Program-made: the position numbers and the translations under genes
The notes under the pieces: generated by a model
Seen by the model: only the letters and a program-made list of their open reading frames with translations
Database searches by the model: none
What the model was told of the DNA's origin: nothing
Origin: a virus
Reading direction: 5' to 3' (one strand)
IMG/VR virus record: IMGVR_UViG_3300036823_000025
Coordinates: 1 to 26,470 of that record
Length of the DNA: 26,470 bases
Part shown: positions 1 to 26,470 of the stretch, piece after piece
Position numbering within the stretch: position 1 is the first letter of the stretch
Layout of the letters: each line of letters begins with the position of its first letter

Positions 1-886
1 GGCTCGGGCCGCGCACGTACTTCGAGCACCCCTCGGCGACCAGGCGGCGACCCATCGCGGTGACGATCGCGCTGTGCCGGCCCGGGTGGAAGAAGGACGC
101 GCCGGGGAACGGCTCGAGGTGCGCGGCAGGCGCAGGCGTCGGCTTGGCCGGGGCAGGCTTGGCCCACTGCGGGTCGGCCGACACGATGCCGCCCGGGTAC
201 GCCGGGTAGCCGTACCCGTAGACGTAGGTGTCGCGGCGCGCCCGCTTCTTGAGGTAGACGCCGTCGCCCTCGCTGCTGCCGTTGTCGTTGGTGTTGCCCT
301 CGACGGTGTAGATGTAGGTGTCGTCGTAGGCGTAGACGATGCCGGTGTGCGCACCGCCGCCCGCGCCGTACAGCACCTGAGCGCCGACGGCCGGGTACTC
401 CGACCACCGCTTCTTCGCCTTCCAGAACGCCACCGAGGTCGGGCAGGACGCGGTGACCGGGTACGACCCGGCCGGCATGCCGCCCTCCTGGAAGCCGTAG
501 GACGTGAAGACGTTGCACCACGGCTGGCCCTCGCTGGACACCCAGGCCAGGCCCGGGACCTTCGCGGCGAACTTCTCGATGTTGTCGTAGTGCCCGGCCT
601 TGTCCTTGCCCTCGTGGTAGCCGACCTGGGCCGTCACGGCAGCGATGACCGCGGCGGCGGTGCCGGGGGTGACCTTGGCGGCCGTCCGCTTGGTCGTCCG
701 GCGGGGCGCGGGCGCTGACTCCGCGTCGGGTGCCTCCTCGACGACGGTGTCCGGGGTGCCGGACTCCGGGTCGCGGCCGGTGCTGACCGGAAGGTTGGCA
801 CCCGGGCCCGGGTCGCCGCCCGTCGGGGCGTAGACCGGGCTGTCGTCGGGGACCGGTGGGCTGTCGGGTTCGGTCTCGGTGCTCAT
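1..886 (-). CDS. CHAP-domain endolysin with C-terminal peptidoglycan-binding domain (partial, runs off left edge)
   Basis: Reading the minus strand from ATG 886 gives 295 codons with no stop before the window edge. Residues 1-70 are a Pro/Asp/Glu-rich, probably disordered extension. Residues 78-215 form a CHAP amidase/endopeptidase domain: catalytic Cys124 in QPWCNVF, His180 in GAHTGIVY and a polar third residue near EGNTN (196-200). A Pro/Ala linker (242-257) leads to the start of a peptidoglycan-binding repeat (FFHPGRHSAIVTAMGRRLV, 265-283). CHAP lysins cut cell-wall peptides or the sugar-peptide amide bond, so this is the phage lysis enzyme. AAGGAG lies about 6 nt before the ATG. It is the last gene visible in the leftward late operon; no holin is in view. 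The enzyme class is clear from the motifs; the exact bond cut is not. Confidence 0.88.
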   Translation of the reverse strand, partial: MSTETEPDSPPVPDDSPVYAPTGGDPGPGANLPVSTGRDPESGTPDTVVEEAPDAESAPAPRRTTKRTAAKVTPGTAAAVIAAVTAQVGYHEGKDKAGHYDNIEKFAAKVPGLAWVSSEGQPWCNVFTSYGFQEGGMPAGSYPVTASCPTSVAFWKAKKRWSEYPAVGAQVLYGAGGGAHTGIVYAYDDTYIYTVEGNTNDNGSSEGDGVYLKKRARRDTYVYGYGYPAYPGGIVSADPQWAKPAPAKPTPAPAAHLEPFPGASFFHPGRHSAIVTAMGRRLVAEGCSKYVRGPS

Positions 887-957: not shown

Positions 958-1782
958 TCAGGCGGCGAGGCGCAGCTGGATGAGGTCGATCTCCGAACGC
1001 AGGGCGTTGTAGGTCGACAGGCGCATGTAGAAGTAGCCGCCGTCACCCCAGCCGTCGGTCCAGGAGTTCCGGACCTTGATGACGGTCTTCTCGGGGACGA
1101 CGTGGCCGTCCGCGTCCTGGACGACCGAGACCAGCGCGACGACGCAGACCTCGTGGCCGCCGGCGACACCGGAGGAGGCCCAGTTCGCGTCGCTGTCGAT
1201 GAAGCCGTCGGCGTCCGGGGTGAAGAAGGCCTGGAGCCAGGGCATCCCCATGAGGACGCCGCCGAGCTGGAGCAGCGACGCGAAGTCGTCCGCGTTCGTC
1301 GCGTGGACGTAGTTGTCGATCAGGCCGCGGCGCTTGAGGACCGTGGCGATGCCCAGACCGGAGCTGCCGCAGTCGGTGGGCGGCCACTGCTCGCCGGGGT
1401 CGTCGTCGGCCTTCGTCGCGTCGCTGTAGAGCGCGATGGCGAACTTCTCGGCCGGGACGGGGCCGGAGGTGTCCAGGCCCGCGGTGGTGAGCTTGGCCAG
1501 CGGAAGGAGCACGGACAGCGCGGCCGTGCCGCCGTTGCCGGTGCAGGAGCCCAGCGCGTCCGGGTTGCCGCCGCCCTTGACGACGTCACCGGCCCGGATG
1601 CCCTGCGCGTGCAGGTCCTCCTGGTCCAGGACCGGAACCTTCGGCGCCCACTCGACCGGCTTGAGGACCGCGGTGGGGTCGTGGCGGTGCAGGTAGGCCA
1701 GGCTGCGCCCGTCCAGGCGCTGGTGCCGGCCGAGCTTCGGGTGGTGCGGGTACTGCCTGGTGATGACGCCGTTCTGGTGCAC
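958..1782 (-). CDS. Papain-like C1-family cysteine peptidase (phage-encoded)
   Basis: This 274-aa protein carries a full papain-type triad: Cys80 in ALGSCTGNGG, His210 in GGHEVCVVAL and Asn239 in RNSWTDGWGDGGYFYM. Those are the hallmarks of peptidase family C1 (clan CA). There is no signal peptide or membrane segment, so export would need a holin or virion packaging. The motif usually reads DQGxLGSC, with the oxyanion-hole Gln six residues before Cys. Here DQ is at 53-54, separated from LGSC by about 22 extra residues, and Pro74 sits at the usual Gln position. The start is GTG at 1782; only a weak GGGGAG lies upstream. It sits between the tail fiber and the endolysin, which suggests a role in lysis, virion maturation or host entry. 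The family assignment is strong; the biological role is unknown. Confidence 0.85.
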   Translation of the reverse strand: MHQNGVITRQYPHHPKLGRHQRLDGRSLAYLHRHDPTAVLKPVEWAPKVPVLDQEDLHAQGIRAGDVVKGGGNPDALGSCTGNGGTAALSVLLPLAKLTTAGLDTSGPVPAEKFAIALYSDATKADDDPGEQWPPTDCGSSGLGIATVLKRRGLIDNYVHATNADDFASLLQLGGVLMGMPWLQAFFTPDADGFIDSDANWASSGVAGGHEVCVVALVSVVQDADGHVVPEKTVIKVRNSWTDGWGDGGYFYMRLSTYNALRSEIDLIQLRLAA

Positions 1783-1949: not shown

Positions 1950-3818
1950 CTACAGGGAGTACAGGACGTTGTTGAGGCTCACCCACGGCGGCAGCACGCC
2001 GGTCCCGGTGCCGACGACGTCGAAGGTTCCGTCGGTGTCGAAGTCGAGCTTGAGCGAGGACAGCGACGAGGAGGCCAGCGAGCAGCCAGCGGTGACGGTC
2101 CGCTTGGACGCGGGACGGTAGTCGCTGATCAGTGCGGCAGCCAGTGGCTTGCCGCTGTTGGCGATTGTGGTGCCGCTGTAGGTCAGGTTCAGGCCGCCGC
2201 GCCACTGGACGAACTTCGTGCCCAGGATGTTGATCACCCTGTACTGCGGGGTGCCGTTGCTGTTGCCGTTGCCGGTGTACCCGCTCGCCAGCGTGGGACT
2301 CGTCCAGTTCTGGACCAGGCCGATAGTGGTGCTGCCGAACTGCAGGCTGTCGCTGCCGTCGGCGACCAGGAGCGTTTCGCCGCCGCTGCCGTTGGCGATC
2401 AGGCCCGTGTACCCGAGGAACAGCCCCATCGAGCCGGTGGAGAAGGAGAAGCCGCCTAGGGTCGTGCCGTTGCCGGCTTCGATGTTGAGCGAGGCGGCTC
2501 CGTCGCCGGTGTCAGCGGTGGTGATGTTCATCGTCGGCATGGGCCCGAACTCGTCGGGGAACACAGACTGGAACATCTGCCCGGGGGTGACCTCGGAGCC
2601 GTTGCCGGAGTACCACACGATGCCGGGCGGGAAGACCTCTCCGTCGCCGTAGTCGTAGCCCTGAGGCACGTGCGGGACCAGTTCGACACGGCTCCCCGAC
2701 GCGGCGGTGCGGATGTCGGCGCCGGTGATGGTCTTACCGTCGATCGCCGTGGCCGACAGCAGGGTGGCGGTGATGGCCCCGGCCGCGATCTCGGTTGCCG
2801 TGATGGTGCCGGCCGCGATCTGCCCGGCCGTGATCGTATTCGCGGCGATCTTCGCAGCCGTGACCGCCCCGGCGTTCAGCGCGGTGGTGGTGACGGCGTC
2901 CGCAGCGATGGCCGTGGCGTCCACGGCTCCGGCTGCGATGTTGCCGGCGAGGATGGTGTTGGCCGCGATCTGGGTGGTGGTGATGGCCCCGGCCGCGATC
3001 TGCCCGGCCGTGATGGTGTTCGCGGCGATCTTCGCAGCCGTGACCGCGCCAGCCGCGATCGCGCCTGCGGTGACCGCCCCTGCCACCAGCTGCGAGGTGT
3101 CGACAGACGCCGGGGCAATCGCGGGGCCCGTCACCGATTCGGAGGCCAGCGCTGCGGCCGTGACCGCGGCGTCGGCGATCGCACTGGCCGTCACAGCATC
3201 AGCGGCCAGGGCGGCAGAGTCGATCGCCCCCGTAGCGACCTTGGCCGAGGTGACGGCGTCGTCCGCGAGCTTGACCGTGGTGATGATGCCGTCGAGGACG
3301 TCGTCGGCCACCACCTCGGTGGGGCCGAACGGGCCAACCTCGTCTGAGGCCGCAGAGGCCGTACCTGAGGTGTTCCGCGACAGCAGGACAACGTAGCGCT
3401 CACCGTCACACGGAACCGTTAGGGTGCCGCCGCGCGGCGACTCCAGGGTCCCCTGCAACGTCGTGCCGTCCGGAGTGAAGCCGCTCACGGCAGAGACGTG
3501 AATCTCCACCCGGGCGAAGTCCAGCGGTGCCGGCGAGCCGTCCGCGAAGGCCCCATCCCACGCGGCCGAGATGCCCCCGAGGATCGACGCCACCACCGGG
3601 TTCGTGGGGACCGGTGGCGTCGGACCGTTCGTCGCGGTCATGGCCGTGGTGCCGTCCGGCTGCTGGCCGATGATGGCCCGAAGGCTCCCAGTTCCGTCGT
3701 ACACCTGGACCGCGGTGTTCTCGATGGACGCGTTGACCAACTTCGGGGACCGCGTCAGCACACTGACGCGCCGTTCGAGGGTCGCGATCCTCGCACCGAT
3801 ATCAAGCTGACTAACCAT
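1950..3818 (-). CDS. Tail fiber / receptor-binding minor tail protein with decapeptide repeats
   Basis: The product is about 622 aa. Residues 1-30 resemble a short helical oligomerisation segment. Residues 68-160 look like a fibronectin-III-like domain. Residues about 174-373 are twenty tandem 10-residue repeats with pattern (I/L)A-xx-A(I/V)T-xxx, such as IAAGAVTAAK and IAANTITAGQ. The C-terminal 240 residues are Gly/Ser/Thr-rich beta sequence, ending with a segment (FVQWRGGLNLTYSG ... ISDYRPASKR) of the type seen at trimeric siphophage fiber tips. The likely role is host recognition at the tail tip. ATG 3818 is preferred over GTG 3824 because AGGA lies about 10 nt before the ATG. It follows the hub gene after a 12-bp gap. 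The role is confident; the receptor is unknown. Confidence 0.85.
   Translation of the reverse strand: MVSQLDIGARIATLERRVSVLTRSPKLVNASIENTAVQVYDGTGSLRAIIGQQPDGTTAMTATNGPTPPVPTNPVVASILGGISAAWDGAFADGSPAPLDFARVEIHVSAVSGFTPDGTTLQGTLESPRGGTLTVPCDGERYVVLLSRNTSGTASAASDEVGPFGPTEVVADDVLDGIITTVKLADDAVTSAKVATGAIDSAALAADAVTASAIADAAVTAAALASESVTGPAIAPASVDTSQLVAGAVTAGAIAAGAVTAAKIAANTITAGQIAAGAITTTQIAANTILAGNIAAGAVDATAIAADAVTTTALNAGAVTAAKIAANTITAGQIAAGTITATEIAAGAITATLLSATAIDGKTITGADIRTAASGSRVELVPHVPQGYDYGDGEVFPPGIVWYSGNGSEVTPGQMFQSVFPDEFGPMPTMNITTADTGDGAASLNIEAGNGTTLGGFSFSTGSMGLFLGYTGLIANGSGGETLLVADGSDSLQFGSTTIGLVQNWTSPTLASGYTGNGNSNGTPQYRVINILGTKFVQWRGGLNLTYSGTTIANSGKPLAAALISDYRPASKRTVTAGCSLASSSLSSLKLDFDTDGTFDVVGTGTGVLPPWVSLNNVLYSL
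2700..3299 (-). repeat. 30-nt tandem repeat array coding fiber decapeptides
   Basis: About twenty degenerate 30-nt units lie inside the tail-fiber gene. The element ggccgcgatc or a close variant recurs every 30 nt on the plus strand, for example at 2781, 2811, 2961 and 2991. The stretch 2811-2868 is repeated at 2991-3048 with only about three mismatches, offset exactly 180 nt (six units), which suggests a recent internal duplication. The unit encodes one decapeptide turn, so copy-number change would lengthen or shorten the fiber shaft in frame. Confidence 0.9.
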
Positions 3819-3830
3819 GATCACTCATTC

Positions 3831-4931: not shown

Positions 4932-5866
4932 ACGATCCCCTCGAGGAACTCCACGTCGGCGATGAACGTGGTGGAGGCGTCCGCGCCGGCAGTTGCCGGG
5001 CCCGGGTTGGAGGTGATCTGAATCGTCATCGTCAGGTTCTGGTTCGTGCCCCTGTACCCGACCGGGATGGCGAAGGAGTCGGCTACCTCGAGCGGGACGC
5101 GGTGGATTCCCGCGATGCTGTTGTCGTCCAGGAACACGGACTGCAGGGCGACGGAAGAGCCGAGCTTCGCCGCGACGTTCCCGGCCACGCCGGTCGTCGA
5201 CAGGCGAATCCCCGACATGCGAATCGAGACCTTCGCGCTGGTGGCCCACGCCGGCACCGGGACGGCGAACGTCGGCCCGCTCGGCATCGCGACCGGGCTG
5301 CTCTGGGTGCCCGTCACCGTGACCAGGCTGGACGGGGAGTAGGTGTACAGGCTCCGGCTGGTGCGGGGGTTCGCGAGCTGCCGCAGGTCGGTGATCATCG
5401 CGTTGGTGATGGTCGACGTCGACGGGGGGATCGCGATCCGGGCCAGCGGGATCGCCGTCATCCCCGCGGGGGGCTGCGTGGCCGTGCTGGCCACGTTGCT
5501 GACGATGTCGAAGAACACGATCTGGTCGGTGGCCGGGTCCAGGCTGCCCTCGTACTCCGGGTCGAGCACCCGCAGGACGACCATGTCGTACCTGGTGGAC
5601 CCGCCGGTCGAGGCGATGCCGATGGTGTCCGCGCCGACGTTGGACGCGGTGTACGCGCCCTGGAACGCGTCGGCCTGCCCGTTGATCGTCGCGGTGCCGC
5701 TGGCCATCTGCACGCCGGCGCCCGGTGTGCCCTCTTGGGTGACCTTGAGGTCGGCGCCCTGCGAGATGCCCTGGTTTCCGCGCGCCAGGGCGTACGTCAT
5801 GAGCCGGAACTGCTGCGCGGGATGGGATGCGCCGTCGGTCAGCAGCGGCGCCTGGGACAGGGTCAT
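4928..5866 (-). CDS. Minor tail / baseplate protein
   Basis: This 312-aa beta-rich protein has two parts. Residues 1-165 form an N-terminal domain (ALARGNQGISQGADLKV, then RYDMVVLRVLDPEYEG and QIVFFDIVSN) typical of actinophage tail-tip proteins. Residues 190-312 are a Thr/Ser/Val-rich domain resembling a jelly-roll or carbohydrate-binding fold. GAGGAG sits about 7 nt before ATG 5866 and overlaps the end of the preceding Dit gene. It overlaps the next gene by 4 bp (GTGA). Its position between Dit and the hub protein suggests a structural or receptor-contact role at the tail tip. I recognise the type from context more than from a specific family motif. Confidence 0.65.
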   Translation of the reverse strand: MTLSQAPLLTDGASHPAQQFRLMTYALARGNQGISQGADLKVTQEGTPGAGVQMASGTATINGQADAFQGAYTASNVGADTIGIASTGGSTRYDMVVLRVLDPEYEGSLDPATDQIVFFDIVSNVASTATQPPAGMTAIPLARIAIPPSTSTITNAMITDLRQLANPRTSRSLYTYSPSSLVTVTGTQSSPVAMPSGPTFAVPVPAWATSAKVSIRMSGIRLSTTGVAGNVAAKLGSSVALQSVFLDDNSIAGIHRVPLEVADSFAIPVGYRGTNQNLTMTIQITSNPGPATAGADASTTFIADVEFLEGIV

Positions 5867-24222: not shown

Positions 24223-24657
24223 ATGATCCCCCGCATGGTGGGGATTCGGGCGGGACGAGCAGGTGCAGCTGTGCTGCTGGGTGCGGGGCTACTGGCCGGC
24301 GCGGCCGGCTGCGGGGGCGACAGCGGGAACAGCGGGCAGCCGCTGGGTGCACCGTCGTCGCTGTCTGCTTCGCTGCGGCCGGTGGTGGAGCGCGGGTTGG
24401 CCCAGGCGAACGGACCGGTGCCGGGGAAGCTACGGGCGGCGGACAGCGGGACGCCGGGCCGGCCGGAGCTGACGGCCTACCGCACGGAGGTGTTGCAGTT
24501 CGCGATGCTGTGCACCGTCCCGGACGACCAGGTGCAGGCGCTGGCCCAGCAGGCGAAGGCGTCGTGGAAGCAGCCGTCGCTGCTGGCCGCGCTCAAGGAG
24601 ATCGAGCTGCGGGTGTCGGCCGGCGTCTCCTGTACGGACGCCGCCGCGGGGTCCTGA
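24223..24657 (+). CDS. Small secreted lipoprotein, divergent from the terminase genes
   Basis: This 144-aa protein starts with basic residues, then a hydrophobic stretch (AAVLLGAGLLAGAAGC) ending at Cys30, a lipobox-type site (A-A-G-C, with Ala replacing the usual Leu at -3). A Gly/Ser-rich linker follows, then a helical domain with Cys97 and Cys137 that could form a disulfide. It should be anchored outside the membrane. It is one of only two plus-strand genes here and is followed 7 bp later by a strong hairpin, so it is its own transcription unit. Prophages often express such lipoproteins as superinfection-exclusion factors, but no specific family is recognised. ATG 24235 is an alternative start. 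Confidence 0.72.
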   Translation: MIPRMVGIRAGRAGAAVLLGAGLLAGAAGCGGDSGNSGQPLGAPSSLSASLRPVVERGLAQANGPVPGKLRAADSGTPGRPELTAYRTEVLQFAMLCTVPDDQVQALAQQAKASWKQPSLLAALKEIELRVSAGVSCTDAAAGS

Positions 24658-25580: not shown

Positions 25581-26470
25581 ATGGAAGACGACGACCACTC
25601 TGCGCAACTGAAAGAGCTGCTGACCGCAAAACGTGCAGCTGTCGACCCGGCATGGTTCGGTGAGCGCCTGGACCAGTTCTCCCCGCGGACCGGGCCCGGC
25701 CTGACGCAGCACGACCTCGGGACGCTGACCGGGAAGTCCGGCCGACACGTGGGGAACCTGGAGTCCGGGCGGGCCGCGAACCCCTCGGCGGTGTGGCTGG
25801 AGTCCATCGTCACCGTGCTGGGCATGTCCCCCGACGAACGGATCCTGCTCTACCGCCTCGCGGTCGGCCACGACCCGTTCCCGGACCTGACCCTGACCAC
25901 GCTGCCCAGCGGCGTCCGGCCACCGTGGGAGGCGATCCTGCAGGCGACCGCCTACCCGGGTTACGTCTCCGGCCCGTTCTGGGACGTCGAGTTCTGCAAC
26001 TCCCAGTACGAGGAACTCCTGCCCGGGTTCGACCTGGCCGGGCACCGCAACGTCATGCGGTACTGCCTGCTCGACAAGGACGCCCGCGAGAACCTGCTCC
26101 TGAACTGGCTCGAGGACTGGGCTGTCCCGATGGTGGCCCAGGTGAAGTCGGCGATGCCGATCCTGCGCGAGCACGAACGCATGCAGGCCCTGGTCGAGGA
26201 CCTGCGCACCGACGCGGTCGTCGACCGGCTCTGGCGCGGCATCCCCCACGACGTGATGACGAAGGTCCACCCGAACGGGGACCAGCGCGCGATCTGCCAC
26301 CCGCGGTTCGGCCGACAGACGCTCTACATCGCCGCGTCGACGCCGATGGGGTACGACGGGCACCGAATCATCGTCCTGGTGCCGACCGCGATGCCGGCGC
26401 AGCCGTCCGCGTCGGCGCAGATGTGGCGCGGGTACGGCACCGCGGCCGCGGGCGCTGCCGAGGCGATGCG
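25581..26470 (+). CDS. XRE-family regulator with MmyB-type ligand-binding domain (partial, runs off right edge)
   Basis: ATG 25581, with GGAG about 6 nt upstream, opens 296 codons with no stop before the window edge. Residues 26-95 are a Cro/C1-type helix-turn-helix (GLTQHDLGTLTGKSGRHVGN, followed by LESGRAANPS). Residues about 118-270 resemble the MmyB-like (MLTR) C-terminal domain: AYPGYVSGPFWDVEFCNSQY, NWLEDWAVPMVAQVK, then FGRQTLYIAASTPMGYDGHR. Such regulators are abundant in Streptomyces, where several control secondary metabolism or morphology; the ligand here is unknown. It may be a phage regulator or a host gene flanking a prophage. The family call is strong; its link to the phage is inferred. 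Confidence 0.85.
   Translation, partial: MEDDDHSAQLKELLTAKRAAVDPAWFGERLDQFSPRTGPGLTQHDLGTLTGKSGRHVGNLESGRAANPSAVWLESIVTVLGMSPDERILLYRLAVGHDPFPDLTLTTLPSGVRPPWEAILQATAYPGYVSGPFWDVEFCNSQYEELLPGFDLAGHRNVMRYCLLDKDARENLLLNWLEDWAVPMVAQVKSAMPILREHERMQALVEDLRTDAVVDRLWRGIPHDVMTKVHPNGDQRAICHPRFGRQTLYIAASTPMGYDGHRIIVLVPTAMPAQPSASAQMWRGYGTAAAGAAEAM

What the first reader, a model, noticed from the sequence alone, without database searches (positions are those of the whole stretch)
958..1782. Phage-encoded papain-like C1 peptidase with a displaced oxyanion-hole segment
Cys80, His210 and Asn239 with the NSWTDGWGDGGYF segment define a C1 peptidase, an uncommon gene type in a tail-lysis cassette. The usual DQGxLGSC motif is split: DQ (53-54) is followed by about 22 extra residues before LGSC (77-80), so the usual oxyanion Gln is absent from position -6. 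It could be a virion maturation protease, an entry enzyme or a lysis auxiliary.
Basis: partly seen in the sequence, partly recalled or inferred. Interest (0 to 1): 0.62.

Follow-up and report, generated by a model that had tools for sequence, protein, structure and literature searches.

The report
Phage papain-like protease with loop insertion
A Streptomyces virus carries a papain-type protein-cutting enzyme beside its cell-bursting gene; such enzymes are widespread in viruses of these bacteria, but this branch has a conserved 20-residue loop inserted next to the active site that I did not find described before.

Summary
The gene is real and the main residues are as stated: 274 aa, Gln54, Cys80, His210, Asn239. 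A confident AlphaFold2 model (mean pLDDT 93.8) has the papain fold, closest to xylellain (Z 21.1). (1) The gene type is not uncommon in actinophages: relatives occur in Gordonia, Arthrobacter, Mycobacterium and Streptomyces phages and in over two dozen Streptomyces phage-plasmids, often next to an endolysin gene (at least 30 of 37 loci with the insert and 29 of 47 without). A 2023 paper already reports xylellain-type C1A peptidases in Caudoviricetes. (2) The split motif is a conserved trait of a clade: 42 sequences share the insert (20 extra residues); a tree built without those columns needs one gain. (3) The oxyanion Gln is not lost: Gln54 is invariant in all 99 sequences, while position -6 is Gln in 56/57 ordinary relatives and never in the clade. 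Gln60, inside the insert, is also invariant in the clade. Most likely this is an active C1 endopeptidase with an extra ordered loop beside the active site, made with the late genes and helping lysis; a virion or intracellular role is not excluded.

The parts
958..1782 (-). C1 (papain-fold) cysteine peptidase gene, 274 aa, GTG start
1669..1782 (-). residues 1-38: N-terminal extension; in structural alignments residues from about 12 onward overlap the end of the pro-segment of procathepsins/xylellain, the mature-enzyme counterpart starts at about residue 39
   Evidence: model ranges 12..274 against proenzymes, 39..274 against mature enzymes; pro-segment role is inference
1621..1623 (-). codon of Gln54, invariant; counterpart of papain oxyanion-hole Gln19 by alignment
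   Evidence: 99/99 sequences
1555..1620 (-). residues 55-76: loop of 22 residues where ordinary relatives have 2 (20 extra), with a short helix 64-67 in the model
1603..1605 (-). codon of Gln60 inside the insertion, invariant in the insertion-bearing clade (42/42)
1543..1545 (-). codon of catalytic Cys80
   Evidence: 99/99
1153..1155 (-). codon of catalytic His210
   Evidence: 99/99
1066..1068 (-). codon of catalytic Asn239
   Evidence: 96/99; Gln in three pZL12-like members
2..886 (-). endolysin, cut by the contig end; downstream neighbour
   Evidence: (phrog_9589, E 1.5e-72)
1950..3824 (-). tail fibre protein; upstream neighbour
   Evidence: phrog_892, E 6.5e-28

Best explanation
The gene encodes a xylellain-like C1 cysteine endopeptidase of a pZL12-like Streptomyces phage (a phage-plasmid lineage, or a prophage related to it). 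Shown by sequence and model: papain fold; Cys80/His210/Asn239 conserved; Gln54 invariant; a clade-specific 20-residue loop between Gln54 and the catalytic helix; position between tail fibre and endolysin. Inferred: Gln54 still lines the oxyanion hole, and the loop bulges out beside it at the active-site cleft, probably shaping substrate access or holding the N-terminal extension. Inferred: the enzyme is made late as a cytosolic protein (no signal peptide), with its N-terminal 38 residues acting as a short pro-segment. It gains access to the envelope with the endolysin once the holin acts, and cleaves wall-associated proteins or peptide parts of the wall, so helping lysis and release. Estimated likelihoods: active-type C1 peptidase fold 0.95; Gln54 as oxyanion residue 0.8; lysis-stage role 0.45.
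For: Fold: AlphaFold2 pLDDT 93.8, pTM 0.92; xylellain 3ois Z 21.1, rmsd 2.8 over 214 residues; family profile against xylellain E 1.2e-12. Triad and Gln54. Single gain of the insertion. Lysis context: own neighbour is an endolysin. Endolysin relative within 3 kb on the same strand in at least 30/37 insert-bearing and 29/47 other loci, in many of the latter with the match starting within 3 bases of the peptidase stop codon. 43 downstream genes are dominated by endolysin families. Gordonia phages keep lysin A - small gene - C1 peptidase - holin. No hydrophobic N-terminus. Papain-fold matches in the viral structure library include a lysin A and proteins named N-acetylmuramidase and peptidoglycan-binding, and a papain-like N5 domain of mycobacteriophage LysA is described (PMC6116114).
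Against: Several relatives lie far from lysis genes: among tRNA genes and HNH endonucleases (Shaeky, Sycamore, Wakanda), in the right arm of mycobacteriophages, next to terminase or thymidylate synthase. So the enzyme does not depend on that context and may act inside the cell. Neighbouring genes also include tail fibres, so gene position does not separate lysis from virion roles. Three pZL12-like members have Gln for Asn, and three others a changed Trp, in the NSW motif, so activity may be lost in some.
Confidence: 0.5

Rival explanations
1. Virion-associated peptidase: the protein is packaged at the tail tip with the fibre and trims tail proteins during maturation, or digests surface proteins of the hypha at entry.
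For: Gene follows the tail fibre directly in the pZL12-like lineage. In other lineages the genes upstream include families annotated virion structural or tail protein (phrog_13989, phrog_1887) and two large recurrent families (phrog_5313 unknown, phrog_24476 phosphodiesterase).
Against: In Gordonia phages the gene lies between lysin A genes and the holin, and in Mycobacterium and several Streptomyces phages it is nowhere near tail genes. No virion proteomics found.
Confidence: 0.25
2. Intracellular accessory protease that degrades host or rival-phage proteins (takeover or counter-defence), carried as a movable accessory gene.
For: Patchy contexts: tRNA arrays with HNH endonucleases, right-arm accessory regions, beside terminase or thymidylate synthase; no export signal.
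Against: Dominant linkage to endolysin genes and late-gene position in this window.
Confidence: 0.22
3. Oxyanion hole rebuilt: Gln60 of the insertion, not Gln54, stabilises the oxyanion, and Gln54 is only structural.
For: Gln60 is invariant in all 42 insertion-bearing sequences; position -6 is never Gln in them.
Against: Gln54 stays invariant in both clades (99/99), which is expected if it keeps its role; Gln60 has no counterpart in ordinary relatives.
Confidence: 0.12

Closest known systems
Xylellain (Xylella fastidiosa, PDB 3ois), short bacterial xylellain-type C1A peptidase
   Same: Papain fold over residues 11-274, Z 21.1; an N-terminal extension before the mature-type start; GSCT-N after the oxyanion Gln; same triad order.
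   Different: Xylellain has the ordinary DQGRIGSC spacing; the window protein has 20 more residues there; about 20% identity; xylellain is cellular, this one is phage-borne.
Actinophage 'cysteine protease'/phrog_16701 peptidases (Gordonia Forza/Morgana/Lilbeanie, Arthrobacter Mufasa8, Mycobacterium Indlovu, Streptomyces Shaeky/Sycamore)
   Same: Homologous over most of the length, 29-36% identity, same N-terminal GRxxxxDxRS motif, Gln, Cys, His, Asn; often in the lysis cassette.
   Different: DQG-x-[LV]-G-[SM]-C without the insertion in the five aligned here.
pZL12 gene 46c and homologues on Streptomyces phage-plasmids (pZL12, pCQ3 and others)
   Same: 48-55% identical, same insertion, same neighbours (Dit, minor tail, gp37-like, tail fibre upstream; lysis genes downstream).
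   Different: Some have NSH or QSW instead of NSW; annotated only as hypothetical protein.
Lpg2622 (Legionella, PDB 6a0n/6a0q)
   Same: Best Foldseek E-value (1e-10), C1 peptidase with LDQG-xx-GSC.
   Different: Ordinary spacing, larger; cellular.

Membership tests
Peptidase family C1 (papain fold), xylellain-type | Papain fold | tested here: met
   Model pLDDT 93.8; xylellain Z 21.1, many cathepsins Z 15-18
Peptidase family C1 (papain fold), xylellain-type | Catalytic Cys, His, Asn in that order in conserved motifs | tested here: met
   C80 99/99, H210 99/99, N239 96/99 in the family alignment
Peptidase family C1 (papain fold), xylellain-type | Detectable sequence homology to known C1 peptidases | tested here: met
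   Family profile finds 3ois E 1.2e-12 and 6a0n E 2e-7; phrog_16701 peptidase E 9.5e-23
Peptidase family C1 (papain fold), xylellain-type | Pfam PF00112 score above the curated cut-off | tested here: inconclusive
   19.2 bits against a cut-off of 20.7 for this protein alone; 29 of 57 aligned relatives match PF00112 at E <= 0.01, best 3.1e-9
Peptidase family C1 (papain fold), xylellain-type | Gln side chain in the oxyanion hole | not testable with these tools
Peptidase family C1 (papain fold), xylellain-type | Thiol-peptidase activity | not testable with these tools
   needs purified protein
Canonical papain active-site spacing (Gln six residues before Cys) | Gln at position -6 of the catalytic Cys | tested here: not met
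   Pro74 at -6; in the clade 0/42 have Gln there, against 56/57 of ordinary relatives. It is therefore filed as a spacing variant.

The most novel reading that the evidence does not exclude
The clade has rebuilt the oxyanion side of a papain active site: the conserved loop with invariant Leu57 and Gln60 supplies a catalytic or gating residue, making a C1 subfamily with a different way of stabilising the oxyanion or of locking the zymogen, used in phage lysis.
Probability: 0.1. Interest if true: 0.55.

Novelty: new variant of a known kind. Interest (0 to 1): 0.32.

Why it matters
The oxyanion Gln at -6 is among the steadiest spacings of papain-like enzymes; a whole phage clade that tolerates 20 conserved residues inside it shows where the fold can take an insert beside the active site without losing its catalytic residues. 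The recurrent pairing with endolysins suggests that a proteolytic step may be a common, untested part of lysis in phages of actinobacteria.

Tried and rejected
Loss of the oxyanion Gln: rejected as the default reading, because Gln54 is invariant in 99/99 sequences. Private oddity or sequencing error of this contig: rejected, 41 other sequences share the insert. Multiple gains of the insert in the clade: the tree needs only one (that branch has SH-aLRT 94, just under the starred level of 95, quick method, no bootstrap). A relative outside the clade (L064) has an unrelated shorter insert of 11 extra residues at the same place, so the site accepts insertions more than once. A disulphide C138-C213: both Cys together in only 13 of 42 clade members, so not a conserved pair. 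Single-sequence search of viral contigs found nothing because its patterns were specific; alignment queries found hundreds. Papers on virion proteomics of such proteases or on this insertion: none found in the held library.

Full report
Observation. The ORF at 958-1782 (minus strand) is a 274-aa protein with a GTG start and strongly coding base composition. Between Gln54 and Leu77 there are 22 residues, where ordinary relatives have two, so the net insert is 20 residues.

Identity. Pfam sees only the C-terminal papain segment, just below its cut-off (19.2 against 20.7 bits); PHROGs gives a peptidase family, phrog_16701, E 9.5e-23. An AlphaFold2 model from 57 aligned sequences has mean pLDDT 93.8 and pTM 0.92. 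Its best structural matches are xylellain (Z 21.1, 214 residues, rmsd 2.8) and procathepsins (Z 15-18), with residues from about 12 aligned to proenzymes and from about 39 to mature enzymes. Foldseek ranks Lpg2622 and xylellain first, and the family profile finds both in the PDB by sequence (E 2e-7 and 1.2e-12). It is a xylellain-like C1 peptidase.

The insertion. I collected relatives from phages, plasmids, IMG/VR contigs and bacterial genomes. In the 99 different sequences aligned, Gln54, Cys80 and His210 are invariant and Asn239 is present in 96. Forty-two sequences carry the insert, nearly all with 23 residues (22-24) between DQ and [GA]SC where ordinary relatives have 3; position -6 from the Cys is never Gln in them, whereas it is Gln in 56 of 57 others. 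Inside the insert Leu57 and Gln60 are invariant (42/42), and position 62 is Ile or Val; a short helix 64-67 is modelled and the region has high confidence (blocks 51-80: 96, 94, 92). On a tree built without the insert columns the carriers form one side of a branch, one change (SH-aLRT 94; shuffled mean about 32). So the 'displaced oxyanion-hole segment' is an old, conserved loop insertion between a retained Gln and the catalytic helix. A review of papain-like enzymes notes in general that the catalytic helix can be joined to the core by long insertions (PMC10318531).

Context. The window's contig is a virus record of 26,470 bases. The best matches of its terminase are 61-70% identical and lie on 85-93 kb Streptomyces and Kitasatospora plasmids, nearly all of which also carry the peptidase, and its Dit, minor tail and gp37-like genes keep the pZL12 order. 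Thus it is a pZL12-like phage. The peptidase lies between a tail fibre gene and an endolysin. This is a recurrent arrangement: a conservative BLAST-seeded count finds an endolysin relative within 3 kb on the same strand in 30 of 37 insert-bearing and 29 of 47 other loci (a lower bound for detection at each locus, but related genomes, and seeds taken from some of the same loci, inflate the number of independent cases). The downstream genes of 43 relatives are dominated by endolysin families, and Gordonia phages have the gene between lysin A and holin. Yet some relatives lie elsewhere: among tRNAs, in right-arm accessory regions, near terminase or thymidylate synthase.

Mechanism. The most likely reading is a late-made cytosolic C1 endopeptidase, with a short N-terminal pro-like segment and no hydrophobic signal, that reaches the wall with the endolysin and cleaves wall proteins or peptides; I put the lysis-stage role at 0.45, a virion role at 0.25 and an intracellular accessory role at 0.22. 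The loop probably shapes access to the cleft. All of this beyond fold, residues and context is inference.

Known or new. Xylellain-type C1A peptidases in Caudoviricetes were already reported in 2023 (PMC10380794), annotated phage records call such genes cysteine protease, and a cysteine protease-like endolysin was described for Gordonia phage BetterKatz (PMC4982276). The insert-bearing clade itself I did not find described, within the limits of the held library. It is a new variant of a known kind.

Noticed in passing
L001, L026, L105 (NSW changed to QSW) and L013, L015, L016 (NSH), pZL12-like peptidases: A few insertion-bearing relatives have Gln for the catalytic Asn or His for the Trp of the NSW motif, hinting at altered or lost activity in one sublineage.
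   Followed up: partly
L064 peptidase at about 4935-5846: A relative outside the clade has its own shorter insertion (DQGSYFDPITKKRISLGSC) at the same place.
   Followed up: no
L003 3968-4828, L112 4004-4636, L113 3863-4573: Ordinary-type relatives sit beside or inside tRNA gene arrays with HNH endonucleases in Streptomyces phages.
   Followed up: no
24223-24657 and 25581-26468, plus strand: Beyond the terminase end, a short lipoprotein-like ORF and an MmyB-type helix-turn-helix regulator run opposite to the phage genes; this may be bacterial flank of a prophage.
   Followed up: no
L116 4792-9200: In the phage-like stretch of a 152 kb linear Streptomyces plasmid the peptidase lies between a glycoside hydrolase family 6 gene and a LysM endolysin plus holin, with a poly-gamma-glutamate hydrolase further on.
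   Followed up: no
about 2740-3260, minus strand: The tail fibre protein carries many short repeats of the ITAGQIAAGAIT type.
   Followed up: no
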